A stretch of 64,000 bases of DNA from Gemmobacter caeruleus (GTDB taxonomy: Bacteria > Pseudomonadota > Alphaproteobacteria > Rhodobacterales > Rhodobacteraceae). Position numbers and translations under genes: made by a program. Below, one piece after another: positions 26,497 to 44,384 of this stretch (position 1 is its first letter; each line of letters starts with the position of its first letter). The notes under the pieces were generated by a model. The model was not told the origin of the DNA, ran no database searches, and saw only the letters and a program-made list of their open reading frames with translations. The stretch covers positions 310,001-374,000 of the forward strand of contig NZ_VKKX01000033.1 in assembly GCF_008271655.1 (NCBI RefSeq). Reading direction: 5' to 3'.

Positions 26497-26509
26497 AAGA
26501 TCACCTTAT
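26495..26509. promoter_or_regulatory. Candidate LysR operator (ATAAG-N5-CTTAT)
   Basis: A perfect 5-bp inverted repeat ATAAG-N5-CTTAT containing the T-N11-A pattern typical of LysR sites, in the divergent lysR/mttB intergenic region and touching the regulator's own ATG. This is where autorepression and divergent activation would be expected. Binding is inferred. Confidence 0.4.
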
Positions 26510-26586
26510 CAGTTCAATGAAGATTTTCCAGCGTTACAGGTGGCGGGCGCAAGCCTAATCTCGCGGCAGATTCTGGAGGAACGATC

Positions 26587-28155
26587 ATGGCGGACGGGAA
26601 CGAGCTGGGCCGGGAAGCGAAACGCGCGCGCGGCGGTCGCACCCAGCGGCGCGAGGAGCGGTCGCGCGGTGCGGCGGTGCATCGGCCCTATATCGTGCGT
26701 GGCATCCCGACCTATGACATCCTGTCGGAAGAAAGCCTGGTGCGGATCGAACGGACCGCCGAGCGGATTCTGGCGGAAATCGGCATCGAACTGCGCGACG
26801 ACGCCGAGGCGATGCAGCTTTACAAGCGCGCCGGCGCGCAGGTCACCGACCAGTCCGAGGGGATCTGGCGGATCCGGTTCGAGCCGGGCATGGTGCGCGA
26901 GATCCTGAAAACCGCGCCGGCCGAATTCACCCAGCACGCCCGCAATCCGGCGAACAATGTGCAGATCGGAGGGCGCAACGTGGTCTTCGCGCCGTCTTAT
27001 GGCAGCCCCTTTGTCATGGATCTGGATCGCGGCCGCCGCTACGGCACGATCGAGGATTTCGAGAATTTCGTGAAGCTGAGCCAGGCTTCGCCCTGGCTGC
27101 ACCACAGCGGAGGCACGGTCTGCGAACCGACCGACGTGCCGGTGAACAAGCGGCATCTGGACATGGTCTATGCCCATATCCGCTATTCCGACCGTGGCTA
27201 TCTGGGTTCGATCACCGCGCCCGAACGCGCCGCCGACAGCGTGGAGATGTCGCGCATCCTGTTCGGCGCGGATTTCGTCGATCAGAACTGCGTGGTGATG
27301 GGCAATTTCAACACCACTTCGCCGCTGGTGCTGGATGGCGTCACGGCGGCGGGGATCCGCACTTATGCGGCGGCCAATCAGGGCTCCATCCACCTTCCCT
27401 TCCTGCTGGGCGGCGCAGTGGCGCCGCTGACCATTGCCGGGATGGTGGCGCAGGGCCTGGCGGAAAGCATGTCGTCCTGCGCGCTGGCACAGCTGGTGCG
27501 GCCCGGCGCACCGACGGTGCTGGCGAGCTTTTTCTCCTCCATGAGCCTGCGGACCGGATCGCCGACCTTTGGCACGCCGGAACCAGCCATCGGGTCGCTG
27601 GTCATGGGGCAACTGGCGCGGCGGCTGAACATGCCCTTGCGCTGTGCCGGGAATTTCAGCACCTCGAAACTGCCGGACGGGCAGGCGATGCAGCAAAGCA
27701 TGATGTCGATGATGTCGGCGGTGCAGGGCGGGGCGAATTATGTGCTGCATTCGGCAGGCTTTCTCGACGGGCTCTTGTCGATGTCCTACGAAAAGCATGT
27801 GATGGATACCGACATGTGCGGCGCGCTGCATGCCTATCTGGATGGTATGGCCGTGGATGACGATGCGCTGGCCTTTGACGCGCTCAATGAGCTGGGGCCG
27901 GGGCAGCATCTGTTCAGCACCCAGCACACCCTGCGCCATTACGAAACCGCCTATTGGGATTCCGCGCTGGATGACAACCAGCCCTGGGAAACCTGGGATG
28001 AGCAGGGCGGCATCGACAGCGCCCGGCGTGCCAATACGCGCTGGAAAAAGACGCTGGCGGAATACGAGGCTCCGCCGCTGGATGCCGGCATCGACGAGGC
28101 GCTGCGCGACTTCATGGCCCGTCGCAAGGGTGCCGTGCCCGACATGTGGTATTGA
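26587..28155 (+). CDS. MttB-family (non-pyrrolysine) trimethylamine/betaine methyltransferase, copy 1
   Basis: A protein of 522 residues behind GGAGGAA (just before 26587). It belongs to the MttB/COG5598 superfamily: an N-terminal helical region and a TIM barrel, with blocks such as GRNVVFAPSYGSPFVMDLD, HHSGGTVCEPTDVPVNKRHL and LPDGQAMQQSMMSMMSAVQG. There is no internal in-frame TAG, so it is the non-pyrrolysine type, whose characterised members (MtgB, MtpB) demethylate quaternary amines such as glycine betaine or proline betaine onto a corrinoid protein. Given the adjacent HpbD-like epimerase and betaine importer, proline-betaine-type substrates are likely. The usual corrinoid carrier (MttC) and reductive activase (RamA) are not in the window. 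Confidence 0.88.
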   Translation: MADGNELGREAKRARGGRTQRREERSRGAAVHRPYIVRGIPTYDILSEESLVRIERTAERILAEIGIELRDDAEAMQLYKRAGAQVTDQSEGIWRIRFEPGMVREILKTAPAEFTQHARNPANNVQIGGRNVVFAPSYGSPFVMDLDRGRRYGTIEDFENFVKLSQASPWLHHSGGTVCEPTDVPVNKRHLDMVYAHIRYSDRGYLGSITAPERAADSVEMSRILFGADFVDQNCVVMGNFNTTSPLVLDGVTAAGIRTYAAANQGSIHLPFLLGGAVAPLTIAGMVAQGLAESMSSCALAQLVRPGAPTVLASFFSSMSLRTGSPTFGTPEPAIGSLVMGQLARRLNMPLRCAGNFSTSKLPDGQAMQQSMMSMMSAVQGGANYVLHSAGFLDGLLSMSYEKHVMDTDMCGALHAYLDGMAVDDDALAFDALNELGPGQHLFSTQHTLRHYETAYWDSALDDNQPWETWDEQGGIDSARRANTRWKKTLAEYEAPPLDAGIDEALRDFMARRKGAVPDMWY

Positions 28156-28281
28156 CCGCGAAAGGCGGGGTCGGAGCCCCCGCCGCATGTCGCAAAATCA
28201 TCCGTCCGCTTCGCAGCCATGACTGTGGCGATTCGCGGTTCGGCGCCTGATGGCGTCATCCGTATCGCAAGGAGCCACGCG

Positions 28282-29835
28282 ATGAACGAAGTCGTCAACA
28301 GGACCGGCCGTGCCGGTGGCCGCGGCGCCCGCCGCGCGATGCGGGCCGCGCCCGATTTCGACATGTTGCCGGCCCTGCGCCGGGGCATCCCCGAATGCGA
28401 GGTGATAGACCCTGCCCGGGTCGAACAGATCGACGCGGCCTCGATGGCGATCCTCGAAGACGTGGGCGTGGTCTTTCGCGACGAGATCGCGCTGGCCGAT
28501 TGGCGCCGCGCGGGCGCAAAGGTCGAGGGCGACCGCGTCTATCTGGATCGCGGGCTGGTGCGCGAACTGATCGCAACCATACCCTCTGGCTGGACCTACC
28601 GCGCCCGCAACCCGGATCGCAGCCTGCCCTTTGGCGGCAAGCATTCGATCTTTGTGCCGATGACCGGCGCGCCCTTCCTGCGCGATCTCGACGACGTGCG
28701 GCGCTGGCCGACGATTGCCGACCTGAACATGTTTCACAAGTTGTCGCATATGTCGCCGGCGCTGCATTCGACCGCGCATCACATCGTGGAACCGATGGAT
28801 CTGAAGGTGAGCCACCGCCACCTGCACATCACCTATTCGTCGATGAAACATTCCGACAAGACCTTCATGGGCATGACGACCAGCGGCCGGAACGCCGAGG
28901 ATGTCATGGCGATGTGCGAGATCCTGTTTGGCCGCGACGTGATGGAGGAAACCCCGGTCACCACGGGCAATTGCAATGGCAATTCGCCGTTGGTCTGGGA
29001 TGAAACCATGCTTTCCGCCATGCGCGCCTTCGTCAGGCGGCGGCAGCCGGTGCTGTGTTCGCCCTTCGTGCTGGGCGGCGCGAATACGCCGGCCTCGGTC
29101 GCGCCCGCCGTCGCGCAGCTCAATGCCGAGGCGCTGTCGGCGCTGGCCTATACGCAGGTGATCCGCAAGGGGGCGCCGGCGATCTATGGCCATTACCTTT
29201 CGACCGTCAGCATGAAATCCGGCGCGCCGATGGCCGGGACGCCGGAAATCAGCCTGATGAATTTCATGATCGGGCAGATGGCGCGGTTCTATGGCGTGCC
29301 GTGGCGCACCTCGAACCTGTTGGGCGGGGCCAAGACCTTTGACGCGCAGGCGGGCTATGAAAGCGCGATGACGATGAATGCGGTGCTGCATGCCGGGGCG
29401 AATTACATCTGGCATTCGGCCGGCTGGAACGAGGCGGGGATGCATTGTTCGACCGCCAAATTCGTCGTCGATGCCGAGATGTGCGCCATGGGCTATCGCA
29501 TGGCCGAGGGTGTTCGCTGGGATGATTTCGATACCGCGATGCAGGCCGTGCGCGATGTGGGGCCGGGCGGGCATTACCTTGGCCATCCGCACACGCTTGA
29601 GAATTTCGAGCGCGCCTTCTTCATGCCCAGGCTCTTTGACAACAACTCGATCGAGCAATGGCAGGCCGAAGGATCGGTGGAAATCACGCAGCGCGCGCTG
29701 GATCGGGCGCGGCAATTGCTGGCCGATTACGAAGAGCCAAAGCTGGATCCCGGCACGGACGAGGCGCTGCGCGACTATATCGCCCGCCGCGAGCGCGAGA
29801 TCCCGGCGGTGGACGAACTGAACACCGAATACTGA
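28282..29835 (+). CDS. MttB-family (non-pyrrolysine) trimethylamine/betaine methyltransferase, copy 2
   Basis: A protein of 517 residues; the ATG at 28282 has AAGGAG seven bases upstream and is preferred over an in-frame ATG at 28219. It is the same superfamily as the preceding gene and largely collinear (GGKHSIFVPMTGAPFLRDLD, MEETPVTTGNCNGNSPLVWD, GGANTPASVAPAVAQLNAEA), but clearly diverged, so it is an old paralogue and not a recent duplicate. There is no internal TAG. The tandem pair suggests two substrates, two demethylation steps or a hetero-oligomer; which one cannot be decided from sequence. A strong hairpin follows the stop. Confidence 0.88.
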   Translation: MNEVVNRTGRAGGRGARRAMRAAPDFDMLPALRRGIPECEVIDPARVEQIDAASMAILEDVGVVFRDEIALADWRRAGAKVEGDRVYLDRGLVRELIATIPSGWTYRARNPDRSLPFGGKHSIFVPMTGAPFLRDLDDVRRWPTIADLNMFHKLSHMSPALHSTAHHIVEPMDLKVSHRHLHITYSSMKHSDKTFMGMTTSGRNAEDVMAMCEILFGRDVMEETPVTTGNCNGNSPLVWDETMLSAMRAFVRRRQPVLCSPFVLGGANTPASVAPAVAQLNAEALSALAYTQVIRKGAPAIYGHYLSTVSMKSGAPMAGTPEISLMNFMIGQMARFYGVPWRTSNLLGGAKTFDAQAGYESAMTMNAVLHAGANYIWHSAGWNEAGMHCSTAKFVVDAEMCAMGYRMAEGVRWDDFDTAMQAVRDVGPGGHYLGHPHTLENFERAFFMPRLFDNNSIEQWQAEGSVEITQRALDRARQLLADYEEPKLDPGTDEALRDYIARREREIPAVDELNTEY

Positions 29836-29845
29836 CCCCCGCCAG

Positions 29846-29873
29846 GGGCCGCCCCGCATCGGGCGGCCCTTCT
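29846..29873 (+). terminator. Hairpin between the methyltransferase pair and hpbD
   Basis: A perfect 9-bp stem GGGCCGCCC / GGGCGGCCC with a CGCATC loop followed by TTCT. It likely attenuates transcription so that downstream hpbD and the SDR genes are expressed at a lower level or from their own promoter. Confidence 0.6.
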
Positions 29874-29907
29874 GCACCGCGATCCGCCAGCAGATGAACA
29901 GGGCATC

Positions 29908-31014
29908 ATGAAGATCACCGAGATCCACATCTATTCGCACGACCTTCCGGTCAAGGACGGTCCCTATCGCATGGCCATGACCGAGGTCTGGACCCTGCCG
30001 ACGACGCTGGTGAAACTGGTTTCCGACACCGGCCATGTCGGCTGGGGCGAGACCTGCCCCGTGGGTTCCACCTATGCCGAGATGCATGTCGGTGGCGCGC
30101 AGGCCGCCTTGCGCGCGATGGGGCAGGGCTTGATCGGTTGCGAGGTCGCGCCGATCCCGCTGCATCAGCGGATGGAGGCGCTGCTGAACGGGCACAACTA
30201 TGCCAAGGCCGCCATCGACATTGCCGCGCATGATCTGCTGGGCCGGGCCTTGGGGGTTTCGGTGGCAACGCTGCTGGGCGGGGCGCTGACGGATCGTGTG
30301 CCCTCCTATTACTCGACCATCGTGGGCGACCCGGATGAAACCGCCCGGATCGCGGCGGACAAGGCCGCCGAGGGCTATCCCCGGCTTCAGATCAAGGTCG
30401 GCGGCCGGCCGGTAGAGATCGACATCGCCACCGTGCGCAAGGTGTGGGAACGGCTGCGCGGCACCGGCACCCGTCTGGCGGTGGATGGCAATCGCAGCCT
30501 GACCACGCGCGATGCGCTGACGCTCAGCCGCGAATGCCCCGACATCCCCTTCGTCCTGGAACAGCCCTGCAACACGGTCGAGGATTTGCAGAAGATCCGC
30601 CCGCAGATCCGCCATGGCCTTTACATGGATGAAAACAGCACCAGCCTGAATACGGTGGTCAGTGCCGTCGGCACCGGGCTGGTGGACGGGTTCGGGATGA
30701 AGGTCACCCGCATCGGGGGATTGCAGCCGATGCGGGTGTTCCGCGACCTTTGCGCCGTGCGCAACCTGCCGCATACCTGTGATGACAGCTGGGGCGGCGA
30801 CATCATCGCGGCGGCCTGCGCCCATATCGGTGCCACGGTGGCGCCCAGGCTGATGGAGGGCGCCTGGCTCGCCCAGCCCTATATCGACGGCCATTACGAT
30901 AGCCGCAACGGCGTGCGGATCGAGGGCGGGCATATCGCGCTGCCGCAGGGGCCGGGCCTGGGCGTGGTGCCCGATGACGGGCTTTTCGGCGCACCGATTG
31001 CTTCTTTTGCCTGA
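29908..31014 (+). CDS. hpbD: 4-hydroxyproline betaine / proline betaine 2-epimerase (enolase superfamily)
   Basis: A protein of 368 residues of the mandelate racemase/muconate lactonizing family. All catalytic positions are visible: K163 in RLQIKVGG, metal ligands D193 (AVDGNRS), E218 (VLEQPCN) and D241 (YMDEN), and the opposing base K265 in [11 protein letters not shown]. These positions coincide with those of HpbD from Pelagibaca bermudensis as I recall it, and long blocks look near-identical ([20 protein letters not shown] versus [20 protein letters not shown]). HpbD inverts C2 of trans-4-hydroxy-L-proline betaine to the cis-4-hydroxy-D form, the first catabolic step. The surrounding transporter and downstream-pathway genes fit this role. 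Other dehydratase or epimerase functions of the superfamily seem much less likely. Confidence 0.88.
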
Positions 31015-31023
31015 GGGGGGATC

Positions 31024-31749
31024 ATGGATCTGCAAGGAAAATGCGCGCTGGTGACCGGCGCCGCCGGCGGGATCGGCGCGGCGGTGGTCGCGGCGCTGCG
31101 CGGGCAGGGCGCCCGGGTCGCGGTGGCGGACCGTGACGTGTCGGGCATCGTGGCCGAGGCGCATCTGCCGGGTGACCTGCTGGACCCGGCCTATGCCGAT
31201 GGCCTGCCGGCGGCGGCGCAAGCGGCGCTTGGCGGGCTGGATATCGTGGTGAACAACGCGGGCGTCATCACGCGCGGCAAGGTGACCGAGACCAGCGACG
31301 CCGATTGGCTTCTGTCGCTGGGTGTCAATGTCGAGGCGCCGTTCCGCATCTGCCGCGCGGCGATCCCGCTGCTGCGGCCGGGGTCTGCCATCGTCAATGT
31401 CGCCTCGTGCTGGGGGCTGCGGCCCGGGCCGGGCCATGCGGTCTATTGCATGACCAAGGCGGCCATTGCCTCGCTCACGCAGTGCATGGGGATGGATCAC
31501 GCCGAAAAGGGCATCCGCATCAATGCTGTCGCCCCGAATGAGGTGAACACGCCGATGCTGCGCAGCGGGTTTGCGCGGCGGGGCTTTGACCCGGATACGG
31601 CGGTGGCCGAGCTGGGCAAGACAGTGCCGCTGGGCCGCATCGCGGAACCCGAGGATATCGCCGATGTGATCCTGTTCCTTGCCTCGGACGCCGCGCGCTA
31701 TATCTGCGGCGCGGTGATCGAGGTGAATGGCGGAAAGCCGGTCAAATGA
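31024..31749 (+). CDS. SDR-family oxidoreductase 1
   Basis: A protein of 241 residues, a classical short-chain dehydrogenase: nucleotide motif [16 protein letters not shown], active-site Ser in [11 protein letters not shown] and Y-x-x-x-K in [11 protein letters not shown]. The C-terminus has the usual [15 protein letters not shown]. It probably oxidises or reduces a secondary alcohol with NAD(P). It is coupled to a second SDR gene by ATGA and follows hpbD by 9 bases, so all three are one operon. The substrate is unknown; a hydroxyl of a hydroxyproline-betaine derivative is a guess from context. Confidence 0.88.
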
Positions 31750-32477
31750 GCCGCTTTGCAGGAAAGGTCGCGCTGGTGACCGGCGGGCGGTCGGGTATCG
31801 GCCAGGCCATTGCGCGACGGCTGGCCGAGGAGGGCGCGCGGGTCTTTACCGCGCAGCGCGGGCCGGACCCGGCATTCGAGGGGATCGAGGCCGATTTCAC
31901 CGATCCCGCCAGCCCCGAAAGGGTGGTGGCGGTGCTGGTTGCGCGGGCCGGGCGGCTGGATGTGCTGGTCAACAATGCCGGCATGATGCAGGAGGCGGCG
32001 GTCGGCGACATGGCGCTGGCCGATTGGGAACGCACCCTCCGCGTGAACCTGACCGCGCCTTTTCTGTTCATCAAGGCCGCCCTGCCGCATCTGCGCGCCG
32101 TGCGGGGCGCCATCGTCAATATCGGCTCGATCGAGGGTCTGGGCGCCAATCCGCGCCACGCCGCCTATTGCGCCAGCAAGGCCGGGCTGCACGGGCTGAC
32201 CCGGGCCGTGGCGGTGGATCATTCGACCGAATTGCGCTGCAACGCCGTGGCGCCGGGCTGGATCGACACCGATCTGAACGAGGCCTTTGTCGCCGCCATG
32301 CCCGACCCGGCGGCCTTTCGCGCCAATATCGGCCGCATCCACCCCGTCGGCCGCACCGGCCGCCCGGATGAGGTGGCGGCGCTGGTGGCCTGGCTGGCCA
32401 GTGACGAGGCGGGCTTTGTCACCGGACAGGTCTGGACGGTGGATGGCGGGCGCATGGCCCGGCTGTCGCTGCCGTGA
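31746..32477 (+). CDS. SDR-family oxidoreductase 2
   Basis: A protein of 243 residues, a second classical [19 protein letters not shown], Ser in [15 protein letters not shown]-x-x-x-K in [10 protein letters not shown] and a C-terminal [15 protein letters not shown]. It is moderately diverged from its upstream neighbour. It is the last gene of the + strand island operon, ending 12 bases before the convergent FAD oxidoreductase. Its role in the island is unassigned. Confidence 0.88.
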
Positions 32478-32489
32478 CGCGCGCGCGGC

Positions 32490-33830
32490 CTATTCCGCCG
32501 CCGCGCGCCATTCCTTGTAGCGCAGATAGGCATTGGCCCCGATGGTCGAGAACGGTCGCGGCGGCAATTTGCGCGGCGGCGCCTCGGCGGTGAAATGCCG
32601 TGTCGCGTCGCTCTCGATGCCGCAGGCCAGATCGGCGGCCGCGATGCCGGTCAGGGTGCTGCGGGTGGTGCCCAGCCCGTTGCAGATGCAGGCGGCGTAA
32701 AGATCCTGTTCCAGTTCGCGCATCATCGAGACGCCGTTCTGGCTCAGGCACAGATGGCCCGCCCAGGTGAATTCCATCGCCAGGCCGCGCAGCTGCGGAA
32801 AGCGGTCATCGAACTTTTCGCGATGCACGCCGGCGCTGCGGCGGATCATCGTTTCGGGGGCCTCCATCCCCGGTTCGAAACTGGCGCAGGTGCGGGTGAT
32901 GATGCGATGGCCGCCCTGACCCGGGTCGATGCGGCGCATGGTGGTGCCCATCGGGTCTGACGGGGTCACCCCCCAACGGGGCTGCCCGCTCAGGGCGCGG
33001 ATCCCCTCGGCGCCCAGATCGACGCTCATCGAGGCGTAAAGGAAGATGTGCATCAGACGGTTGCGGGCAAAGCCAAAACTTTCCAGCTGGCCGTTATTGG
33101 CCATGATCACCTTGCCCGCGCTGACCTGGCCCCCGGGCGTGCGCAGCGCCCAGCCCTGACCCTGCCGCACCATCGCCTGCACCGGCGAGGCTTCAAATAC
33201 CCCGACGCCGTCGCGCCGCAGCCCTTCTGCAAAGCCGCGGATATAGCCGGCGGGTTGCAGCATCACCGTGCCCGGCGTGTACAGCCCCGAGACATAATGC
33301 GCGCTGCCGGTCAGTTCGCGCATGGCCTGCGCATCCAGATAGGTGCTGCCCTCGCCCATCGTCGCCAGATGGTCGGCATAGGATCGGTTCAGCCGGTCGG
33401 CCTGTTCCGAGGCGGCGCCGTTCACCTTGCCGGCGGGGTCAAAGAAATTGCGGTCGATGCCGTAATCCGCCACCACGCCCTCGGCAAAGCCGATGGCGCT
33501 GCGGTTCAGCGCGATCAGCGCGCGGTCATCGCCGCCGCCGGAATAATCCTCTGACGTCAGCTCATGCGGCAGGTCGATCATGAAGCCCGAATTGCGGCCC
33601 GAGGCGCCTTCGGCGATGCGGCTGGCCTCCAGCACCGCGATGCGGGCGGAGGGGTGCAATTGCCGCAGCCGTCGCGCCGCCGAAAGCCCGGCAAAGCCCG
33701 CCCCCACGATGGCGAAATCGACGACAAGGTCGGTGTCCAGCACCACCGGGCCGGGCTGGCCCGGCAGGATGGCGGACCATGCGGCGGGGCCCCGATGCAC
33801 CGGGATCCGCCGCGCGGTGTGATCGGTCAT
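32490..33830 (-). CDS. FAD-dependent amine oxidoreductase (DAO/PuuB-like)
   Basis: A protein of 446 residues with the FAD-binding motif DFAIVGAGFAGLSAARRLRQ at about residues 38-57 and the EGASGRNSGFMIDLP signature of the PuuB-type D-amino-acid-oxidase superfamily. The C-terminal FAD region is CICNGLGTTRSTLTGIAAADL. Such enzymes oxidise secondary or N-methylated amines. Here the likely substrates are N-methyl-hydroxyproline and/or cis-4-hydroxy-D-proline, giving the pyrroline acid that the downstream DapA-type enzyme would deaminate. It is coupled to the aldehyde dehydrogenase gene by ATGA and is the last gene of the GntR-led operon. Confidence 0.85.
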   Translation of the reverse strand: MTDHTARRIPVHRGPAAWSAILPGQPGPVVLDTDLVVDFAIVGAGFAGLSAARRLRQLHPSARIAVLEASRIAEGASGRNSGFMIDLPHELTSEDYSGGGDDRALIALNRSAIGFAEGVVADYGIDRNFFDPAGKVNGAASEQADRLNRSYADHLATMGEGSTYLDAQAMRELTGSAHYVSGLYTPGTVMLQPAGYIRGFAEGLRRDGVGVFEASPVQAMVRQGQGWALRTPGGQVSAGKVIMANNGQLESFGFARNRLMHIFLYASMSVDLGAEGIRALSGQPRWGVTPSDPMGTTMRRIDPGQGGHRIITRTCASFEPGMEAPETMIRRSAGVHREKFDDRFPQLRGLAMEFTWAGHLCLSQNGVSMMRELEQDLYAACICNGLGTTRSTLTGIAAADLACGIESDATRHFTAEAPPRKLPPRPFSTIGANAYLRYKEWRAAAE

Positions 33831-35332
33831 TGCACCGCCTCGTCGCCGTCATCCGCCAGATCGACCCAGATCGTCTTGAGCTGGGTATACTGGTCATGGG
33901 CATGGATGCCGTTGTCGCGCCCGCCAAAGCCCGATTGCCGGAACCCGCCAAAGGGCGTGGTATTGTCGCCCTCGCCAAAGCTGTTCACCGTCACCGTGCC
34001 GGCGCGGATCGCCCGCGCGCCGCGGATCGCGCGTTTGACATTGGCGGTGAAGATCGAAGCGGCGAGGCCGTATTCGGTGTCATTGGCCAGCGCGATGGCC
34101 TCGTCAAAGCTATCGACCGTCAGGACGGACAGGACGGGGCCAAAGATTTCTTCGCGTGCCTGGCGGGCATCGCGGGCGACCTCCAGGATGGTCGGCTCCA
34201 CAAAGCCGGCCTCGGCCTTGCCGCCCAACAGAACCTTCGGCCCGCCAGCCTTGCCGTTCTGGCCCAGGTAAGACGCGACCTTTTCAAAATGCGCGCTGCT
34301 GACCAGCGCCCCCACCCGGTTGACCGGATCGAGCGGGTCGCCCATCGGCCATTCGCGGGCATGGGCGCGGATGCGGGCCAGCAATGCGTCCTTGACGCCC
34401 TTCTGCACGATCAGCCGCGACGCGGCAGAGCAGTTCTCACCCATGTTCCAGAAGGCGCCATTGACGATATGCGCCGCCACGCGATCCAGGTTTTCGGCAT
34501 CGTCCAGCACCACGGCGGGGTTCTTGCCGCCCATTTCCAGCGTGACTTCCTTGAGGTTCGATTCCCCCGCATAGATGAGGAAGCGCCGCCCCGTCGCGGT
34601 GGAGCCGGTAAAGGACACCGCGTCGATATCCATGTGGCGCCCGATGGCCTCGCCGGTCTCGCCGCCGCCGGGCAGCACGTTGAACACGCCCGGCGGAATG
34701 CCCGCCTCCATCGCCAGTTCCGCCAGCCGCAGCGTGGTGAGCGAGGTCTCCATCGCCGGCTTCACGATCACCGAACAGCCCGCCGCCAGCGCCGGCCCGA
34801 TCTTCCAGGCCAGCATCAGCAGCGGAAAGTTCCAGGGCAGCACAAGGCCCACCACGCCCACGGGTTCGCGGACGATCATGGCGATGTGATTGTCGGAGGG
34901 GGGCGAGACCTGATCATAGATCTTGTCGATCAGTTCTGCATGCCAGGTCAGGCAGTGGATGGTTTCGGGCACATCGACGGTTTCGCAATCATAGATGGTC
35001 TTGCCGCTGTCCAGGCTTTCCATCACCGCCAGTTCGCGGGCATTGCGGCGGATCAGCTTGGCCAGCCGGATCAGCACCTCCTTGCGGTCGCGCGGATGCA
35101 GGCGCGACCAGCGACCGTCCTCGAAGGCGTCGCGCGCCCTGGCGACGGCGAAATCCACGTCCTCGGCACCGCAGGCGGCGATCTGCGCCAGCGCCGCGCC
35201 GGTGGCGGGGTTCACGCTGTCAAAGGTCTTGCCGGATTTCGCCGGGCAGAAATGGCCGTCAATGAAGGCCTGGGTCGGAAAGGTCAGGTCCGCGGCGATG
35301 GCCTTGTATTCTTCATGGGTCAGCAGGGTCAT
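33827..35332 (-). CDS. Aldehyde dehydrogenase (probable 2-oxoglutarate semialdehyde dehydrogenase)
   Basis: A protein of 501 residues starting at the ATG at 35332 (GGAG seven bases upstream); an in-frame ATG at 35347 also exists. The ALDH catalytic set is complete: N168 in LPWNFP, K191 in IVKPAMET, E266 in TLEMGGKNP and nucleophile C301 in GENCSAAS. By sequence type it looks like the PuuC/gamma-aminobutyraldehyde branch. By context (DapA-type deaminase and FAD oxidoreductase in the same coupled operon beside hpbD) it most likely oxidises 2-oxoglutarate semialdehyde to 2-oxoglutarate, the last step of hydroxyproline degradation. Confidence 0.88.
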   Translation of the reverse strand: MTLLTHEEYKAIAADLTFPTQAFIDGHFCPAKSGKTFDSVNPATGAALAQIAACGAEDVDFAVARARDAFEDGRWSRLHPRDRKEVLIRLAKLIRRNARELAVMESLDSGKTIYDCETVDVPETIHCLTWHAELIDKIYDQVSPPSDNHIAMIVREPVGVVGLVLPWNFPLLMLAWKIGPALAAGCSVIVKPAMETSLTTLRLAELAMEAGIPPGVFNVLPGGGETGEAIGRHMDIDAVSFTGSTATGRRFLIYAGESNLKEVTLEMGGKNPAVVLDDAENLDRVAAHIVNGAFWNMGENCSAASRLIVQKGVKDALLARIRAHAREWPMGDPLDPVNRVGALVSSAHFEKVASYLGQNGKAGGPKVLLGGKAEAGFVEPTILEVARDARQAREEIFGPVLSVLTVDSFDEAIALANDTEYGLAASIFTANVKRAIRGARAIRAGTVTVNSFGEGDNTTPFGGFRQSGFGGRDNGIHAHDQYTQLKTIWVDLADDGDEAVQ

Positions 35333-35336
35333 GGCC

Positions 35337-36239
35337 TTACTCCGCAACGATCTGGGCGATGGTGGTCTTGAGCACGCGCACCGTCTGTTCCAGCTGGCGC
35401 TTGTCGTCCTTGTTCAGGGGTTTCAGCGGCGGGCGCGGCGGGCCGGCATATTGGCCCATCATCTCGCAGCCATGCTTGATGCATTGAATGAACTTGCCGC
35501 CCTGTTCCAGCACCCGCATCAGCGGCATCAGCGCCGACATGATGCGGCGACCCTTGTCGAAATTGCCCTCGATCGCGCAGGCACGATACAGCGCCAGATG
35601 TTCGGCCGGCAGAAAGTTGGACCCGCCGCAGACCCAGCTGCGCGCGCCCCAGGCAAAGAATTCCAGCGCCTGATCGTCCATGCCGCAGGACATCTGGATA
35701 TGCGGGTAATCGCGCGCCAGCAGATGCACGCGGTTGATGTCGCCGCTGCTTTCCTTGATGGCACAGATGTTGCGCGACCGGCCCACGCGGTCCAGGAATT
35801 CCTCGCCCATGGTGATGCCCATGCGGCCGGGATAGTTATAGAGCATGACCGGCAGTTCCGCCGCGCGGTCGATGGCCAGCGCGTTCAGGGCGTTTTCACG
35901 CTCGGTCGGGACGGAATAGGGCGGGCTGCCCACCAGGATGGAATCCGCCCCGATATGCGCCGCATGTTCGGCCATGGTCAGCGAATCCTCCAGCCGGATC
36001 GCGACGGTGCCCACCATCAGATGCGTGCGGCCGCGCGTCACCTCACGCGCGAGGGTCGCCAGTTCCTGCCGTTCCTGCATGGTCTGGGCATAATATTCGC
36101 CGGTCGAGCCGCCGTTGATGATGCCGTGAACCCCGGCCGCGATCAGATATTCCAGCTGCGCGACAAAGGCATCGTGGTCGATGCTGCCATCCTCGCGATG
36201 GGGGGTGATGGCGGGGGTGTAGATGCCCTCGAATCTCAT
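35337..36239 (-). CDS. DapA-family lyase/deaminase (probable 1-pyrroline-4-hydroxy-2-carboxylate deaminase)
   Basis: A protein of 300 residues from the ATG at 36239 (GAGGAG upstream, overlapping the GntR stop in ATGA). It is a dihydrodipicolinate synthase-superfamily barrel with Schiff-base lysine K162 in CAIKESSGD, Y134 in VMLYNYPGRMG and the substrate-binding GGSTGEYY. The family includes DapA, NanA, KDG aldolase and the Pyr4H2C deaminase of D-hydroxyproline catabolism. Its place between a GntR regulator, an aldehyde dehydrogenase and a FAD amine oxidoreductase fits the last one: hydroxypyrroline carboxylate to 2-oxoglutarate semialdehyde plus ammonia. True dihydrodipicolinate synthase is unlikely in this context. 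Confidence 0.82.
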   Translation of the reverse strand: MRFEGIYTPAITPHREDGSIDHDAFVAQLEYLIAAGVHGIINGGSTGEYYAQTMQERQELATLAREVTRGRTHLMVGTVAIRLEDSLTMAEHAAHIGADSILVGSPPYSVPTERENALNALAIDRAAELPVMLYNYPGRMGITMGEEFLDRVGRSRNICAIKESSGDINRVHLLARDYPHIQMSCGMDDQALEFFAWGARSWVCGGSNFLPAEHLALYRACAIEGNFDKGRRIMSALMPLMRVLEQGGKFIQCIKHGCEMMGQYAGPPRPPLKPLNKDDKRQLEQTVRVLKTTIAQIVAE

Positions 36240-36958
36240 GAGGCTCCTCTCTGCTCCAGCGGCTCCGGCGCGCGGCCGAGCGGGAAGCGAATGCTGACGG
36301 GGGTGACGAAACTTTCGATCTGGGCGCGCGACAGTTCCCAATGCGCCACGGCCAGATCGGCGGCGGCATCTGCATCGCCGGCCTCGATCAGCGCGATGAA
36401 TTCGTCATGCTGATCGGCTGCGGTGGCCGAGATGCAGGCCATGGCGGCCTTGCGCGGGTCGTAAAAGGTCATGCCGATGCGGGTATGGTCGATGAGCAGG
36501 CGCCGCAGGCTGGGCATGAGGAATTCGTTATCGGCCATGTCGCCGATGATGGAATGGAACCGTTCATTGCCGACGGCGCGTTCGGCGGCATTGCCGTTGC
36601 GGATCGCCTGACGAAACGCCCATTGGCATTCCTTCAGCCGCGCGATCTGTGCGGCAGTGGCATGTTCGGCGGCCAGACGGGTGACCGCGGCATAGATCAT
36701 CGGCGCCGCAACAAAGAAATTGCGCAGGGTCTTGTGCGTCATCGGCGCGACCTGCGCGCCGCGGTTTTCATGCAGCACCACATAGCCTTCGCCGGCCAGC
36801 TGGCGCAGCACCTCGCGCAGCGGGGGGCGCGAGATGCCATAGGTTTCGGCCAGCTCGGTTTCGTCCAGATAGACGCCCGGCTCCAGCACCTGGGTCAGGA
36901 TCTTGCGGCGCAAGTCCTCGGTGCAGATGGCTTTCTTGCTGCGCGATTCGGTTTCCAT
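36236..36958 (-). CDS. GntR-family (FadR/FCD subfamily) transcriptional regulator
   Basis: A protein of 240 residues; the ATG at 36958 has AGGAG eight bases upstream and is favoured over in-frame ATGs at 37018 and 37033. The N-terminal winged helix contains DETELAETYGISRPPLREVL and LAGEGYVVLHENRGAQV, and the C-terminal all-helical FCD domain contains HSIIGDMADNEFLMPSLRRL with the metal/ligand histidines of the family. It heads the dapA-like/aldh/FAD operon and is divergent from the betaine importer, so it probably represses both until substrate or an intermediate is present. Confidence 0.9.
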   Translation of the reverse strand: METESRSKKAICTEDLRRKILTQVLEPGVYLDETELAETYGISRPPLREVLRQLAGEGYVVLHENRGAQVAPMTHKTLRNFFVAAPMIYAAVTRLAAEHATAAQIARLKECQWAFRQAIRNGNAAERAVGNERFHSIIGDMADNEFLMPSLRRLLIDHTRIGMTFYDPRKAAMACISATAADQHDEFIALIEAGDADAAADLAVAHWELSRAQIESFVTPVSIRFPLGRAPEPLEQRGAS

Positions 36959-37016
36959 GGGGATGCTCCTGCCTGAGTTGCCAGTCTGTTTTGACTGCGA
37001 GTCAGGGTTCGTGTCC

Positions 37017-37051
37017 ATTGTGTAGTGCATCAAAATACATATTGTCTACTG
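37017..37051. promoter_or_regulatory. Candidate GntR operator pair in the gntR/proV divergent promoter
   Basis: Two near-identical 11-mers in direct orientation, ATTGTGTAGTG (37017-37027) and ATTGTCTACTG (37041-37051), lie 24 bp apart in the 137-bp intergenic region. The second contains TGTC-TACT, which fits the yGTM-KACy core of FadR-type sites. An additional inverted repeat CAGTC-N6-GACTG is at 36982-36997. Assignment to the adjacent GntR protein is inferred from position only. Confidence 0.4.
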
Positions 37052-37095
37052 AAAAAATCTGTGGTTAGTTTTCCTCAGTTCAAGGGGGATTCTGC

Positions 37096-38172
37096 ATGGT
37101 CGAACTGCGCGAGGACGTCATCCGCTGCGAGGGGATATGGAAGATCTTCGGTGACAGATCGCGACAGGCGACAGAGGCCGTGCGCAACGAGGGCCTGACG
37201 AAAAAGGAAATCCGCGAAAAGTTCGACTGCGTGGTCGGCGTGCAGGATGCCAGCTTTACCGTCGGCAGGGGCGAGATCTTTTGCATCATGGGGCTGTCGG
37301 GGTCGGGCAAATCGACGCTGATCCGCCACATCAACCGCCTGATCGAACCGACGCTGGGCGCGGTCTATATCGAGGGGCAGAACGTCAATGCGATGAACGC
37401 GCAGGAGCTGCGGCAACTGCGGGCCGAAAAGATCGGCATGGTGTTTCAGTCGATGGCGCTGATGCCGCATCGCACCGTGCGCGACAATGTGGCCTTTTCG
37501 CTGGAGGTGCGCGGCGCGTCCGAGGCCGAGCGCGCCAAGGTGGCCGCGCGCGCGATCGAGATGGTGGACCTGACCGGCTGGGATCGCAAATACCCGGACG
37601 AGCTGTCGGGCGGCATGCAGCAGCGCGTCGGCCTGGCGCGGGCGCTGGCGGCGGACCCGACGATCCTGCTGATGGATGAACCGTTTTCGGCGCTCGACCC
37701 CCTGATCCGGCGGCAATTGCAGGGCACTTTCATGGATCTGTCGGCCGAGCTGCACAAGACCACCGTCTTCATCACCCATGACCTTGACGAGGCGATCCGC
37801 ATCGGTGACCGCATCGCGATCATGAAGGACGGCGTGCTGGTGCAGATCGGCACGCCCGAACAGATCGTCACCGAGCCCGCCGACGATTATGTCGCCGAAT
37901 TCGTGGCGGGGATCTCCAAGCTCGATCTGGTGACGGCGGCGCGCATCATGCAGCCGCTGGCCGCCTATACGCAGGCGCATGGCCCGCAGGATACCGCGCG
38001 CTGGCCGGTGGCGCGGCCAGAGCAAAACCTGAACGAACTGGTCGATCTGGCCGTGGGCACCGATCACCCGATCCTGGTCCGCGCCGAGGGCGTGGCGATC
38101 GGCGTGGTGACCAAGCGCGCGCTGCTGCGGGGCATCCAGGGCCGTGACGAAACCGAAGGGAGGGCCGCCTGA
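37096..38172 (+). CDS. proV: Glycine/proline betaine ABC transporter ATP-binding protein (ProV-like)
   Basis: A protein of 358 residues: Walker A GLSGSGKST, Q-loop VFQSMALMPHRTV, signature LSGGMQQRVG, Walker B ILLMDEPFSALD and switch His in VFITHDLDEA. The N-terminal extension (GLTKKEIREKFDCVVGVQDASF) is typical of ProV/OpuAA proteins, and the C-terminal ~100 residues replace the usual CBS pair with a shorter region. It energises uptake of betaine-type compounds. A TGATG overlap couples it to the permease gene. Confidence 0.92.
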   Translation: MVELREDVIRCEGIWKIFGDRSRQATEAVRNEGLTKKEIREKFDCVVGVQDASFTVGRGEIFCIMGLSGSGKSTLIRHINRLIEPTLGAVYIEGQNVNAMNAQELRQLRAEKIGMVFQSMALMPHRTVRDNVAFSLEVRGASEAERAKVAARAIEMVDLTGWDRKYPDELSGGMQQRVGLARALAADPTILLMDEPFSALDPLIRRQLQGTFMDLSAELHKTTVFITHDLDEAIRIGDRIAIMKDGVLVQIGTPEQIVTEPADDYVAEFVAGISKLDLVTAARIMQPLAAYTQAHGPQDTARWPVARPEQNLNELVDLAVGTDHPILVRAEGVAIGVVTKRALLRGIQGRDETEGRAA

Positions 38173-39125
38173 TGGCCGAAACGACGACGTTCGACTGGCT
38201 CAACCCTTTCGCCTCGATCGACCTTGGCATCGCGACCTGGGCCGACGGGATCAAGCAATGGGCGATTTCCAACCGCGACATGATCCAGCCGATCAAGCGG
38301 GTCTTTGAAAAGGCGATCATCGGCATCGAGGGCGCGTTGCAGGCGGTGCCGCCGCTGGTCATGCTGATCCTGCTGGTGCTGATCGCCTGGCAGGCGGCGG
38401 GGCGGCGCGCGGCAATCGTGGTCGGTTGCTGTCTGATGGTGCTGGGCGTCCTTGCGCCCGAGGCCTGGGGCCTTGCCATGACGACGCTCGCCATCGTGAC
38501 GGCTTCGGTGCTGCTTTGCGTGCTGATCGGGTTGCCGCTGGGCGTGCTGGCGGGCAAGAGCGACAGGTTCGAGGCCGTGATCCGCCCGGTGCTGGACACG
38601 ATGCAGACCATCCCGGCCTTTGTCTATCTGGTGCCTGTGGTGATGATGATCGGCATCGGCAATGTGTCTGGGGTGATCGTGACGATCATCTTTGCGCTGC
38701 CGCCGCTGGTGCGGCTGACCTCGCTGGGCATTCGCGGCGTCAATCCCGCCGTGGTGGAGGCCGCCCGCGCCTTCGGCGCCTCGCCCGGGCAGATCCTGCG
38801 CAAGGTGGAACTGCCGCTGGCTACACCGACCATTCTGGCGGGGCTGAACCAGACGATCATGCTGTCGCTGTCGATGGTGGTCATCGCCTCGATGATCTCG
38901 GTCAAGGGGCTGGGCAACGAGGTGCTGCGCGCCATGGGGCGGCTGGATGCCGGCAAGGCCATCGTCGGCGGCCTTGGCATCGTCATGCTGGCCATCGTGC
39001 TGGACCGCATCACCCAGGGGCTTGGCCGGTCGGGCCGTGATCGCGGACACAAACCCTGGTGGCAGACCGGGCCTGTCGGCCTGGTGGCCGGATTTTTCAC
39101 CCCAAAAAATGAAGAAACGCGCTGA
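38172..39125 (+). CDS. proW: Betaine ABC transporter permease (ProW-like)
   Basis: A protein of 317 residues with about six to seven membrane helices and the binding-protein-dependent permease motif near residues 185-215 (VNPAVVEAARAFGASPGQIL), which docks with the ATPase. The QTIPAFVYLVPVVMMIGIGN segment is diagnostic for ProW/OpuAB. It lies between the ATPase and the binding protein in one operon. Confidence 0.92.
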   Translation: MAETTTFDWLNPFASIDLGIATWADGIKQWAISNRDMIQPIKRVFEKAIIGIEGALQAVPPLVMLILLVLIAWQAAGRRAAIVVGCCLMVLGVLAPEAWGLAMTTLAIVTASVLLCVLIGLPLGVLAGKSDRFEAVIRPVLDTMQTIPAFVYLVPVVMMIGIGNVSGVIVTIIFALPPLVRLTSLGIRGVNPAVVEAARAFGASPGQILRKVELPLATPTILAGLNQTIMLSLSMVVIASMISVKGLGNEVLRAMGRLDAGKAIVGGLGIVMLAIVLDRITQGLGRSGRDRGHKPWWQTGPVGLVAGFFTPKNEETR

Positions 39126-39157
39126 ACGCGACATCACCAACCAACCTGGAGATATCC

Positions 39158-40144
39158 ATGAAACACCTCAGCACTGCCACGGCGCTTCTGGCGCTTCTGG
39201 CTTCGACCCCCGCCCTGGCGCAGGACAAACCCGGTGAAGGCGTGACCGTCCGGCCGATCATGTCCACCCAGATGGAGGAGGATTTCCAGCACAAGATCCT
39301 GTTCCGCGCGCTGGAAGACCTCGGCTATACCGTGGCCGAGCCGAACCAGGCCGATTATCAGACCATGATCCTGGCCGTCGGCGCCAATGACGCCGATTTC
39401 AGCGCGGTGGAATGGCGCAGCCTGCATGACGGCTTTTACCAGGAGGCCGGCGGCGATGCGGTGATGACCAAGGTCGGCACCTATATCGAAGGCGCGCTTC
39501 AGGGCTATCTGATTGACAAGAAGACCTATGACAGCGGCATCACCGATCTGGCCCAGCTGGCCGACCCCGAGGTGGCCAAGCTGTTCGATGCCGATGGCGA
39601 TGGCAAGGCCGACCTGGCGGGCTGCATTCCCGGCTGGGGCTGCGAGCGCGTGATCGAGACTGGGCTTGACGCCTACAAGCTGCGCGACACCGTCACGCAT
39701 AACCAGGGCGCGTATCAGGCGATCATCGCCGATACGATCGCGCGGTTCCAGAATGGCCAGCCGATTCTCTACTACACTTGGACGCCCTATTGGGTCTCGG
39801 GTGTGCTGGTCCCGGGCCGCGACGTGGAATGGCTGAGCGTGCCCTTCACCGCCCTGCCCGACGGCGCCACCGGCAATACCGAATACGAGGGCAAGAACCT
39901 CGGCTTTGCGGTGGACAGCATCGGCGTGATCGCGCGCAACGATTTTCTCGCGGCGAACCCGGCGGCGGCCAAGCTGTTCGAGGTGGCCAAGCTCGACATC
40001 AACGACATCTCGGCCCAGAACAAGCTGATCGCGGATGGCGAGAATACCCCCGCCGCCATCGACAAGCATGCTGCGGACTGGATCGCCGCGCATCAGGCGG
40101 AATATGACAGCTGGCTGGCGGCCGCGCGCGCGGCGGCAAAGTAA
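39158..40144 (+). CDS. proX: Betaine-binding periplasmic protein (ProX-like)
   Basis: A protein of 328 residues with a Sec signal peptide (KHLSTATALLALLASTPALA-Q). The mature part is closely similar in reading to E. coli ProX: PIMSTQMEEDFQHKILFRAL, GYLIDKKTYDSGITDLAQL, DADGDGKADLAGCIPGWGCE and ILYYTWTPYWVSGVLVPGRD. ProX proteins hold glycine betaine or proline betaine in an aromatic box; the YTWTPYW segment contributes to it and is intact. This makes quaternary-amine uptake the best-supported function of the island. Confidence 0.93.
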   Translation: MKHLSTATALLALLASTPALAQDKPGEGVTVRPIMSTQMEEDFQHKILFRALEDLGYTVAEPNQADYQTMILAVGANDADFSAVEWRSLHDGFYQEAGGDAVMTKVGTYIEGALQGYLIDKKTYDSGITDLAQLADPEVAKLFDADGDGKADLAGCIPGWGCERVIETGLDAYKLRDTVTHNQGAYQAIIADTIARFQNGQPILYYTWTPYWVSGVLVPGRDVEWLSVPFTALPDGATGNTEYEGKNLGFAVDSIGVIARNDFLAANPAAAKLFEVAKLDINDISAQNKLIADGENTPAAIDKHAADWIAAHQAEYDSWLAAARAAAK

Positions 40145-40155
40145 CCACCACATGC

Positions 40156-40182
40156 GGGGCGCCTGTGACGGGCGCCCCTTTT
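40156..40182 (+). terminator. Rho-independent terminator after proX
   Basis: An 8-bp stem GGGGCGCC / GGCGCCCC with a 7-base loop, followed immediately by TTTT. It ends the importer operon 11 bases after the proX stop. Confidence 0.8.
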
Positions 40183-40196
40183 CCCCGGGGCAGGCG

Positions 40197-41147
40197 ATGA
40201 CCGCGACCACCCATTTCGTCTTCCTGATGCTGCCGGAGTTTTCGCATCTGGCGTTTTCCTGCGCGCTGGAGCCGCTGCGCATCGCCAATCTGGTGGCGGG
40301 CAAGCCGCTGTATCGCTGGACGCTGATCAGCTCCGAGGGCGGGACGGCGACCTGTTCCAACGGCTCGGTCACGCTGGTGCAGGGCGGGCTGGAGCCGCTG
40401 CGTCATGCCGACCGGCTGTTCGTCATTTCGGGCATCCACATGACGCAGCATGTGACGCCCGAATTGCTGGCCTTCCTGCGCCGCGAAAGGGCGGCGGGCA
40501 CGCCGCTGGGCGCCATCTGTTCGGGCGCCTATGTCCTGGCGCGGGCCGGATTCCTGGACGGGGTCGAGACGGCGGTCCATTGGGCCTATCACGATCTTTT
40601 CCTTGAGGAATTCCCTGACGTGCGACTGGTCCGCAACGTCTTTGTCGCGCGCGAGCGGATCATCACCGCCTCGGGCGGGACGGCGGCGGCGGATCTGATG
40701 CTGCATCTGATCGGCAGCCAGCACGGCACCGATCTCGCAACCGAGGTGGCCGACCAGATGGTCTACAACGCCGTGCGAGAGGGGAGTGCGGCACAGCGGG
40801 TTTCGCTGCAATCGCGGCACGGGATGCGCAATGACCATCTCAAGCGCGCCATCGCCATCATGGAGCGCTGCATCGAGGCGCCGGTCTCGCCCAGCCTGGT
40901 GGCCGAGGAGCTGGGCATTTCCACCCGGCAACTGGAGCGGCTGTTCGGCCGCTATCTGAATTCCACGCCCAAGCACTACTTCATGGAAATGCGGCTGAAC
41001 CGGGCGCAGAACCTGCTGGTGCAGACCGAACAGTCGATCACCGAAATCGCGATGGCCTGCGGGTTTCAGTCCACTTCGCATTTTTCCAAGGTGTTTCGCG
41101 GCCATTTCGGCAAATCGCCGCTGTCGCACCGCACCACGCTGGCCTGA
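40197..41147 (+). CDS. GlxA-family AraC-type transcriptional regulator (DJ-1/PfpI + HTH)
   Basis: A protein of 316 residues starting at the ATG at 40197. The N-terminal two-thirds is a DJ-1/PfpI-like amidotransferase fold with the nucleophile-elbow segment GAICSGAYVLARAG. The C-terminal ~100 residues are an AraC-type double helix-turn-helix (VAEELGISTRQLERLFGRYL; ITEIAMACGFQSTSHFSKVF). This architecture includes GbdR, CdhR and SouR, sensors of glycine betaine, carnitine and sarcosine in pseudomonads. Lying directly after proX, it probably activates betaine catabolic or transport genes. Confidence 0.9.
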   Translation: MTATTHFVFLMLPEFSHLAFSCALEPLRIANLVAGKPLYRWTLISSEGGTATCSNGSVTLVQGGLEPLRHADRLFVISGIHMTQHVTPELLAFLRRERAAGTPLGAICSGAYVLARAGFLDGVETAVHWAYHDLFLEEFPDVRLVRNVFVARERIITASGGTAAADLMLHLIGSQHGTDLATEVADQMVYNAVREGSAAQRVSLQSRHGMRNDHLKRAIAIMERCIEAPVSPSLVAEELGISTRQLERLFGRYLNSTPKHYFMEMRLNRAQNLLVQTEQSITEIAMACGFQSTSHFSKVFRGHFGKSPLSHRTTLA

Positions 41148-42762: not shown

Positions 42763-42763
42763 G

Positions 42764-44268: not shown

Positions 44269-44321
44269 GGATCGGTCCCGCAAGGCATGCGCCCTTTTAG
44301 GCAATCGGGGCGCGGCAGAGA

Positions 44322-44335: not shown

Positions 44336-44384
44336 GTCGCCTCGCCGGGGCGGGCGTTATCCGGGCGGAAAAGGAACCCGTGTC

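What the first reader, a model, noticed from the sequence alone, without database searches (positions are those of the whole stretch)
26587..40144. Near-complete hydroxyproline-betaine catabolic island using MttB-type methyltransferases
Seen: two MttB-family enzymes, an enolase-superfamily protein with HpbD catalytic residues K163 and K265, an FAD amine oxidoreductase, a DapA-type lyase with Y134 and K162, an aldehyde dehydrogenase, a GntR regulator and ProVWX. Known: the HpbD pathway epimerises 4-hydroxyproline betaine, demethylates it with Rieske enzymes, then uses a dehydrogenase, a DapA-type deaminase and 2-oxoglutarate semialdehyde dehydrogenase. Inferred: here corrinoid-type demethylation replaces the oxygenases, giving a betaine route that could run without O2 and feed methyl groups to folate.
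Basis: partly seen in the sequence, partly recalled or inferred. Interest (0 to 1): 0.82.

Follow-up and report, generated by a model that had tools for sequence, protein, structure and literature searches.

The report
B12-dependent hydroxyproline-betaine breakdown gene cluster
A Rhodobacter-like bacterium carries a conserved gene set that looks able to eat proline-type salt protectants by moving their methyl groups onto a vitamin-B12 protein, where the known pathway burns them off with oxygen; this has not been tested at the bench.

Summary
In detail: the named genes and active-site residues are there; an SDR pair (31024-32477) was missed. The second MttB (28219-29835, 'MttB2') belongs to the island: 52 of 80 HpbD loci carry its ortholog, and 19 of 20 HpbD-bearing genomes of a family sample against 3 of 22 HpbD-negative ones. 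It follows the corrinoid protein MtgC: 35 of 39 HpbD genomes with MtgC have MttB2, 1 of 14 without. MtgC, RamA, MtgD- and MtgE-like proteins and HpbA lie elsewhere in this genome. The first MttB ('MttB1') is another clade, found beside HpbA (N-methylproline demethylase) in several genomes; I propose proline betaine for MttB1 and hydroxyproline betaine for MttB2. Against simple replacement: this genome keeps a Stc2-family Rieske pair elsewhere, half of the MttB2 genomes have such a Rieske, C. sphaeroides pB carries both, and MttB2 and Rieske do not exclude each other statistically (p 0.24). Substrates, O2-independence and the SDR role are untested. New variant of a known pathway; the two founding papers (Zhao 2013, Kumar 2014) could not be read.

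The parts
25582..26496 (-). LysR regulator, divergent from MttB1
   Evidence: NCBIfam/Pfam LysR; a LysR at 74-82% identity stands beside MttB1 in L012, L014, L170, L173, L174
26587..28155 (+). MttB1: non-pyrrolysine MttB-family methyltransferase, candidate proline-betaine:corrinoid methyltransferase
   Evidence: PF06253 726.6 bits; own clade 100/95; within about 1.2 kb of an HpbA-type gene in G605, G755, G410, G626, G810 and next to one in Roseinatronobacter
28219..29835 (+). MttB2: non-pyrrolysine MttB-family methyltransferase, candidate (cis-4-)hydroxyproline-betaine:corrinoid methyltransferase; likely real start 28282 by comparison with relatives
   Evidence: PF06253 732.4 bits; in 52 of 80 HpbD loci and 19 of 20 HpbD-bearing genomes of the family sample
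29908..31014 (+). HpbD: (hydroxy)proline betaine 2-epimerase
   Evidence: 592 bits to 4e8g, 573 to 2pmq; 68.6% to annotated hpbD; K163, K265
31024..31749 (+). SDR1, short-chain dehydrogenase, role unknown
   Evidence: SDR1/SDR2 hits at >=60%, two or more, in 55 of 80 HpbD loci
31746..32477 (+). SDR2, short-chain dehydrogenase, role unknown
32490..33830 (-). FAD-dependent DAO-family oxidoreductase, candidate cis-4-hydroxy-D-proline dehydrogenase
   Evidence: PF01266 139.6 bits; no PDB sequence match at 1e-6
33827..35347 (-). aldehyde dehydrogenase, candidate 2-oxoglutarate semialdehyde dehydrogenase
   Evidence: PF00171 533.9 bits; below every NCBIfam cut-off shown, best PuuC
35337..36239 (-). 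[quoted passage not shown]
   Evidence: PF00701 165.3 bits; Y134, K162; similar length in C. sphaeroides pB
36236..37033 (-). GntR/FCD regulator
   Evidence: PF00392, PF07729
37096..38172 (+). ProV-type ATPase
   Evidence: TIGR01186 354.5 bits, cut-off 326.6
38172..39125 (+). ProW-type permease
   Evidence: PRK10952 347.4 bits, cut-off 439
39158..40144 (+). ProX-type binding protein
   Evidence: NF008334 441.4 bits, cut-off 215
40197..41147 (+). AraC/GlxA (GbdR-like) regulator; listed ORF begins at 40035
   Evidence: NF052371 GbdR 298.8 bits, below cut-off 480; GlxA-family gene in the same place in C. sphaeroides pB

Best explanation
The island encodes uptake and breakdown of a 4-hydroxyproline betaine by a cobalamin-dependent variant of the hpb pathway. 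ProVWX imports the betaine; HpbD epimerises C2; MttB2 takes one N-methyl from the quaternary amine and gives it to the corrinoid protein MtgC, from which MtgD passes it to tetrahydrofolate (or MtgE to homocysteine), with RamA keeping the corrinoid active; the remaining N-methyl is removed by HpbA or by the FAD enzyme; the FAD enzyme, DapA-type deaminase and ALDH turn cis-4-hydroxy-D-proline into 2-oxoglutarate. MttB1, with its own LysR, is most likely the matching enzyme for proline betaine, working with HpbA encoded on another contig. Shown here: gene families, residues, conserved gene sets, co-occurrence, and presence of the partners in the genome. Inferred: substrates, direction, order of steps and the assignment MttB1/MttB2.
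For: HpbD full-length match to solved relatives, 68.6% to an annotated hpbD, both lysines. MttB2 in 52 of 80 HpbD loci, within 4 kb in 45; in 19 of 20 HpbD-bearing genomes of a 394-genome family sample, one per genus, against 3 of 22 HpbD-negative genomes, Fisher p 6e-8; on one contig within about 5 kb of HpbD in 14 of those 19 (coordinates). MttB2 in 35 of 39 HpbD genomes with MtgC, 1 of 14 without, p 3.6e-8. In Paracoccus onubensis (no MtgC) a Rieske-reductase pair stands just upstream of HpbD-SDR1-SDR2, where MttB2 stands elsewhere. MttB2 stays clustered with DapA-ALDH-DAO genes where HpbD is missing (G408, G414) or about 105 kb away (G445). Own genome has MtgC, RamA, pterin-binding MtgD-like protein (404.7 bits, cut-off 259), homocysteine methyltransferase, HpbA at 69% to the Halomonas query and 88.1% to an annotated hpbA. 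Aerobic precedent: MtgBCDE in Ruegeria pomeroyi (PMC12478193, sections 5, 7, 9 read). Lower steps DAAO, DHDPS, ALDH as in PMC4113996 section 8.
Against: Own genome keeps a Stc2-family Rieske plus reductase. 18 of 36 MttB2 genomes also carry one; across 53 HpbD genomes MttB2 and Rieske are not anti-correlated (18 of 36 vs 12 of 17 at 42%, p 0.24; 18 of 36 vs 6 of 17 at 50%, p 0.38). Five genomes have both within a few kb, and C. sphaeroides pB has both. 4 of 39 HpbD+MtgC+ genomes lack MttB2, one MttB2 genome (G015, a MAG) lacks MtgC, 5 HpbD genomes have neither demethylase. In 5 of the 19 HpbD and MttB2 are far apart (G445, G452) or on other contigs (G544, G581, G717). MtgC is in 21 of 22 HpbD-negative family genomes too, so inside the family MtgC does not discriminate, and both p values are inflated by relatedness and by my choice of genomes. 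G427 has a MttB2-clade gene beside HpbA. The SDR pair has no place in this scheme. The putative MetF2 has no family hit. No activity data.
Confidence: 0.7

Rival explanations
1. The known oxygenase route operates: the Stc2-family Rieske pair at G000:C12:419546 demethylates the betaine with O2, and the MttBs are side players.
For: Its best PDB matches are 3n0q, 4qup and 3vca at 559-594 bits (that 4qup and 3vca are Stc2 stachydrine demethylase is recalled), and it scores under the GbcA cut-off (501 vs 670); a reductase ORF is next to it; Rieske plus hybrid reductase stands beside hpbD in Paracoccus pantotrophus and on C. sphaeroides pB.
Against: It lies on another contig, in a clade of five rows apart from the Rieskes directly beside HpbD or MttB2, though one row of its clade (G687) lies about 12 kb from HpbD; 18 of 36 HpbD+MttB2 genomes have no such Rieske at 42% or more; it does not explain why MttB2 follows HpbD.
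Confidence: 0.15
2. [quoted passage not shown]
For: Closest solved relatives are 4yyc (putative trimethylamine methyltransferase), 2qne (putative methyltransferase) and 9yce (glycine betaine methyltransferase); the regulator after ProX is GbdR-like; PMC12478193 reports glycine betaine as substrate of the Mtg system.
Against: MttB1 and MttB2 are clades apart from each other and from the other own-genome MttBs; MttB2 is bound to the HpbD or DapA/ALDH/DAO set and MttB1 to HpbA in several genomes; another own MttB sits with two dimethylglycine-dehydrogenase-like fusions.
Confidence: 0.1
3. The true substrate is a related cyclic betaine (another hydroxyproline-betaine isomer), and the SDR pair inverts or oxidises its hydroxyl group before or after HpbD acts.
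For: The SDR pair is in 55 of 80 HpbD loci, with MttB2 or in Rieske-type clusters (Halomonas, Paracoccus onubensis), and was not found in the HpbD-less MttB2 clusters L171 and L172; [quoted passage not shown]
Against: The lower genes are of the superfamilies of the cis-4-hydroxy-D-proline route; no SDR substrate is known here.
Confidence: 0.25

Closest known systems
hpb pathway of Paracoccus/Pelagibaca (HpbA, Rieske HpbB/HpbC, HpbD; Zhao 2013 and Kumar 2014 not readable here; hpbA and hpbD names from PLSDB annotation; HpbB/HpbC recalled)
   Same: HpbD, ABC betaine importer, DAAO/DHDPS/ALDH-type lower steps, HpbA in the genome
   Different: demethylase place in the island held by MttB2 instead of Rieske plus hybrid reductase; SDR pair added; no fdhA beside HpbD
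MtgBCDE glycine betaine demethylase/split methionine synthase of Ruegeria pomeroyi (PMC12478193)
   Same: PF06253 methyltransferase; single MtgC, pterin-binding MtgD-like and MtgE-like proteins and RamA in the genome
   Different: MttB2 and MttB1 are separate clades tied to (hydroxy)proline betaine genes
MtpB proline betaine methyltransferase of Eubacterium limosum (as cited in PMC8604678 and PMC12478193; primary paper not readable)
   Same: non-pyrrolysine MttB family, proline-type betaine, corrinoid partner
   Different: anaerobic acetogen; no sequence comparison made here
Stc2 stachydrine demethylase (3vca, 4qup; name recalled)
   Same: same inferred reaction, first demethylation of a proline betaine
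   Different: Rieske oxygenase, needs O2 and releases formaldehyde (recalled)

Membership tests
HpbD 4-hydroxyproline betaine 2-epimerase | full-length similarity to HpbD-type enzymes | tested here: met
   592 and 573 bits over residues 1-368 and 1-366; 68.6% to annotated hpbD
HpbD 4-hydroxyproline betaine 2-epimerase | epimerase activity | not testable with these tools
   needs purified enzyme
MttB superfamily, non-pyrrolysine | PF06253 over full length, no in-frame stop | tested here: met
MttB superfamily, non-pyrrolysine | corrinoid protein, reactivase and methyl-folate:corrinoid transferase in the genome | tested here: met
   MtgC; RamA; MtgD-like
MttB superfamily, non-pyrrolysine | methyl transfer from a betaine to Co(I)-corrinoid protein | not testable with these tools
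   needs enzyme assay
canonical hpb pathway | Rieske oxygenase plus reductase beside hpbD | tested here: not met
   none among the genes scanned from 25582 to 41147; one Stc2-family pair on another contig
canonical hpb pathway | HpbA N-methylproline demethylase | tested here: met
   G000:C3:45615-47648, 88.1% to an annotated hpbA
canonical hpb pathway | DAAO, DHDPS and ALDH superfamily lower steps | tested here: met
   substrate specificity not tested
MtgB glycine betaine methyltransferase | same clade as the mtgC-linked MttB | tested here: inconclusive
   MttB2 and MttB1 fall in clades apart from the own C34-type; a hit at 51% to MttB1 lies beside mtgC in G810 but is not in the tree

The most novel reading that the evidence does not exclude
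Rhodobacteraceae and allies run two substrate-tuned MttB-family enzymes, MttB2 for the HpbD-epimerised hydroxyproline betaine and MttB1 for proline betaine, into one shared MtgCDE corrinoid hub, so that cyclic osmolyte betaines supply methyl groups for methionine and folate without O2; Rieske and MttB modules can stand in for one another, and the MttB form needs MtgC.
Probability: 0.35. Interest if true: 0.7.

Novelty: new variant of a known kind. Interest (0 to 1): 0.56.

Why it matters
It gives specific candidate substrates to two of the many unassigned MttB-family genes of Rhodobacteraceae, links vitamin B12 to the use of cyclic osmolyte betaines, and would allow such betaines to be used without oxygen, for example by anoxygenic phototrophs. 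It is directly testable by deletions in strains that lack the Rieske enzyme.

Tried and rejected
MttB1 and MttB2 as a tandem duplication: rejected, they are separate clades. Reading the own Rieske as GbcA: it scores 501 bits against a GbcA cut-off of 670 and its best PDB matches are 3n0q, 4qup and 3vca; its role stays open. Mutual exclusion of MttB2 and Rieske across genomes: tested and not found (p 0.24 at 42% identity, 0.38 at 50%); at 42-46% some of the counted Rieskes may be GbcA-type. A shared operator between the GntR upstream and MttB2 upstream regions: a scan for 4+4 palindromes present in at least 8 loci of both sets found none. A class-wide sample for HpbD gave only 2 of 385 genomes, so the family sample was used. 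No structure prediction was run. HpbD searches scored at most 5 candidates per genome, so some HpbD-negative labels may be wrong; HpbA searches scored at most 15, and G003 showed none. Of the 20 family HpbD matches G514 is only 49% and G452 62% identical. Of the 80 loci's genomes, 37 were put into, chosen by me for spread and for odd cases, so the 53-genome counts are not an even sample.

Papers: ten full-text searches were seen as listings; no listed title or abstract joins HpbD with MttB, and I opened only PMC12478193 (sections 5, 7, 9 and passages), PMC8604678, PMC11337228, PMC5144071 and PMC9695272 (passages) and PMC4113996 (passages and section 8). Zhao 2013, Kumar 2014 and the MtpB paper are not held; so 'not in print' is not claimed.

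Rows dropped: five duplicate genomes before the counts; rows with an internal stop or under 380 residues before one search's set of 97; one window copy and 15 near-duplicates before the tree of 81. That tree still holds three copies of the own MttB2, and its MttB2 group of 52 includes two distant rows (L046, L081; 43% for both).
Full report
What is there. The window is part of a 3.99 Mb genome (G000:C23:310001-374000). From 25582 to 41147 the genes are LysR (-), MttB1 (+), MttB2 (+), HpbD (+), SDR1 (+), SDR2 (+), then FAD oxidoreductase, ALDH, DapA-type lyase and GntR (all -), then ProV, ProW, ProX and an AraC regulator (+). HpbD matches 4e8g and 2pmq/4h2h over its whole length (that these are HpbD-type is recalled) and is 68.6% identical to a protein annotated hpbD, 4-hydroxyproline betaine 2-epimerase. 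It has K163 and K265; the DapA-type protein has Y134 and K162 counted from its likely start.

Is it a unit? Among 80 HpbD loci (200 relatives found, best 80 kept), 52 carry a MttB2 ortholog at 65% or more, 45 of them within 4 kb of HpbD; 55 have two or more SDR hits at 60%; 48 have at least three hits among DAO/ALDH/DapA. Seven of the 28 without MttB2 (L010, L013, L042, L063, L066, L083, L084) are cut short by the contig end on at least one side. Plasmid pB of Cereibacter sphaeroides 2.4.1 has MttB2-HpbD-SDR-SDR-FAD-ALDH-DapA-GntR-ProVWX-GlxA in the same order, and, about 31 kb away, LysR-Rieske-hybrid reductase.

Does MttB2 belong to HpbD? In a family sample, one genome per genus with one exception, 20 of 394 genomes have HpbD. 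MttB2 is in 19 of these 20 (not G522) and in 3 of 22 HpbD-negative genomes tested. HpbD and MttB2 are on one contig within about 5 kb in 14 of the 19; in G445 and G452 they are far apart and in G544, G581 and G717 on different contigs. In G445 the MttB2-SDR-SDR and DAO-ALDH-DapA-GntR genes stay together while HpbD is about 105 kb away. In G408, where no HpbD was found, MttB2 lies between the DAO and ALDH genes on one strand; G414 is similar but less tight.

Does it depend on the corrinoid system? Of 53 distinct HpbD genomes examined (20 from the family sample, G333, and 37 chosen from the 80 loci, less 5 duplicates), 39 have an MtgC-type protein and 14 do not; MttB2 is in 35 of 39 and in 1 of 14. 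The 14 are Actinomycetota (7), Gammaproteobacteria (4, one a MAG), one Caballeronia, one Verrucomicrobiales MAG and one Paracoccus, so relatedness inflates the p value of 3.6e-8; inside the family MtgC is nearly universal (21 of 22 HpbD-negative genomes). A Stc2-type Rieske at 42% or more is in 10 of the 14 MtgC-less genomes (4 of 14 at 50%), in 18 of the 36 MttB2 genomes and in 12 of the 17 others; MttB2 and Rieske do not exclude each other (p 0.24). What favours exchange is position: in Paracoccus onubensis, without MtgC, the Rieske-reductase pair stands directly before HpbD-SDR1-SDR2. In Paracoccus pantotrophus Rieske-reductase-hpbD is followed by fdhA, a formaldehyde dehydrogenase. In G001, G003, G021, G023 and G687 Rieske and MttB2 are neighbours.

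The partners in this genome. One MtgC (C12), one RamA (C34), an MtgD-like methyl-folate:corrinoid transferase near RamA, a homocysteine methyltransferase near MtgC. The gene after mtgD is at the place of metF2 in R. pomeroyi but has no family hit at the limits used, so that name rests on position only. HpbA is at C3:45615, 88.1% to a protein annotated as N-methyl-L-proline N-demethylase. So the 'near-complete' island is completed elsewhere in the genome. One Stc2-family Rieske with a reductase ORF beside it is at C12; in a quick tree it falls with four other sequences apart from the Rieskes found directly beside HpbD or MttB2, though one of the four (G687) lies about 12 kb from an HpbD. A second, more distant Rieske protein is at C34 and was not followed.

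MttB1. Of 15 genomes with MttB1 at 65% or more among 75 searched, five (G605, G755, G410, G626, G810) have an HpbA-type gene within about 1.2 kb (in G626 a LysR lies between). In Roseinatronobacter LysR, MttB1 and an NADH:flavin oxidoreductase that matches HpbA are neighbours. In Rhodobacter sp. CZR27 a LysR stands between MttB1 and a Rieske pair, with hpbA about 10 kb off. In G755 a pyrroline-5-carboxylate reductase-like gene follows HpbA. This favours proline betaine for MttB1. In the window genome MttB1 and HpbA are on different contigs. One result goes against a strict split: in G427 a MttB2-clade gene sits with HpbA and a P5CR-like gene.

Mechanism. Characterised non-pyrrolysine MttB proteins demethylate quaternary amines; MtyB had no detectable activity on the tertiary product, though under 1% on a secondary amine (PMC8604678, passages). 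So one methyl by MttB and the second by HpbA or the FAD enzyme is the natural reading. Methyl groups then go to folate or methionine as proposed for R. pomeroyi (PMC12478193, sections 5, 7, 9). That paper notes up to seven PF06253 genes per genome and suggests further substrates; the sections that I read do not name hydroxyproline betaine. UbiU, UbiV, UbiD-like, UbiX and YtfE/RIC genes next door fit an organism with an anaerobic mode, but prove nothing about this pathway.

Novelty. Each module is known. A corrinoid methyltransferase at the oxygenase's place in the hydroxyproline-betaine island, and the MttB1-HpbA link, appeared in none of the listings of ten searches. The two key papers were not readable; a review (PMC11337228, one passage) says that Kumar 2014 worked on Paracoccus denitrificans and Rhodobacter sphaeroides, and the latter carries this cluster, so its authors may have seen the gene.

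Noticed in passing
window 31024-32477: Two SDR genes follow HpbD in many clusters, with either demethylase type; no role in the known pathway as I know it.
   Followed up: partly
window 41845-47106: UbiV, UbiU, UbiD-like, UbiX and YtfE/RIC genes: anaerobic ubiquinone synthesis and Fe-S repair next to the island.
   Followed up: partly
window 23020-24771: 583-residue protein with a weak C-terminal B12-binding match (28.3 bits, below the cut-off 32.1), beside a fliI-like ATPase gene; function unclear.
   Followed up: no
L016, L022, L023, L034, L041, L055, L076 (HpbD loci): Actinomycetota (Geodermatophilus, Streptomyces, Saccharopolyspora, Pseudonocardia) carry HpbD at 72-78% identity, as close as many Rhodobacteraceae, without MttB2 in the genome: possible gene transfer.
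   Followed up: no
L036, L037, L042, L069, L085 and others: A second enolase-superfamily gene at about 30-32% identity to HpbD lies beside HpbD in several clusters.
   Followed up: no
[quoted passage not shown]
   Followed up: no
L093:3788-11840 (G000:C3): Another own MttB stands with two dimethylglycine-dehydrogenase-like fusions and an ALDH: candidate glycine betaine or choline locus.
   Followed up: partly
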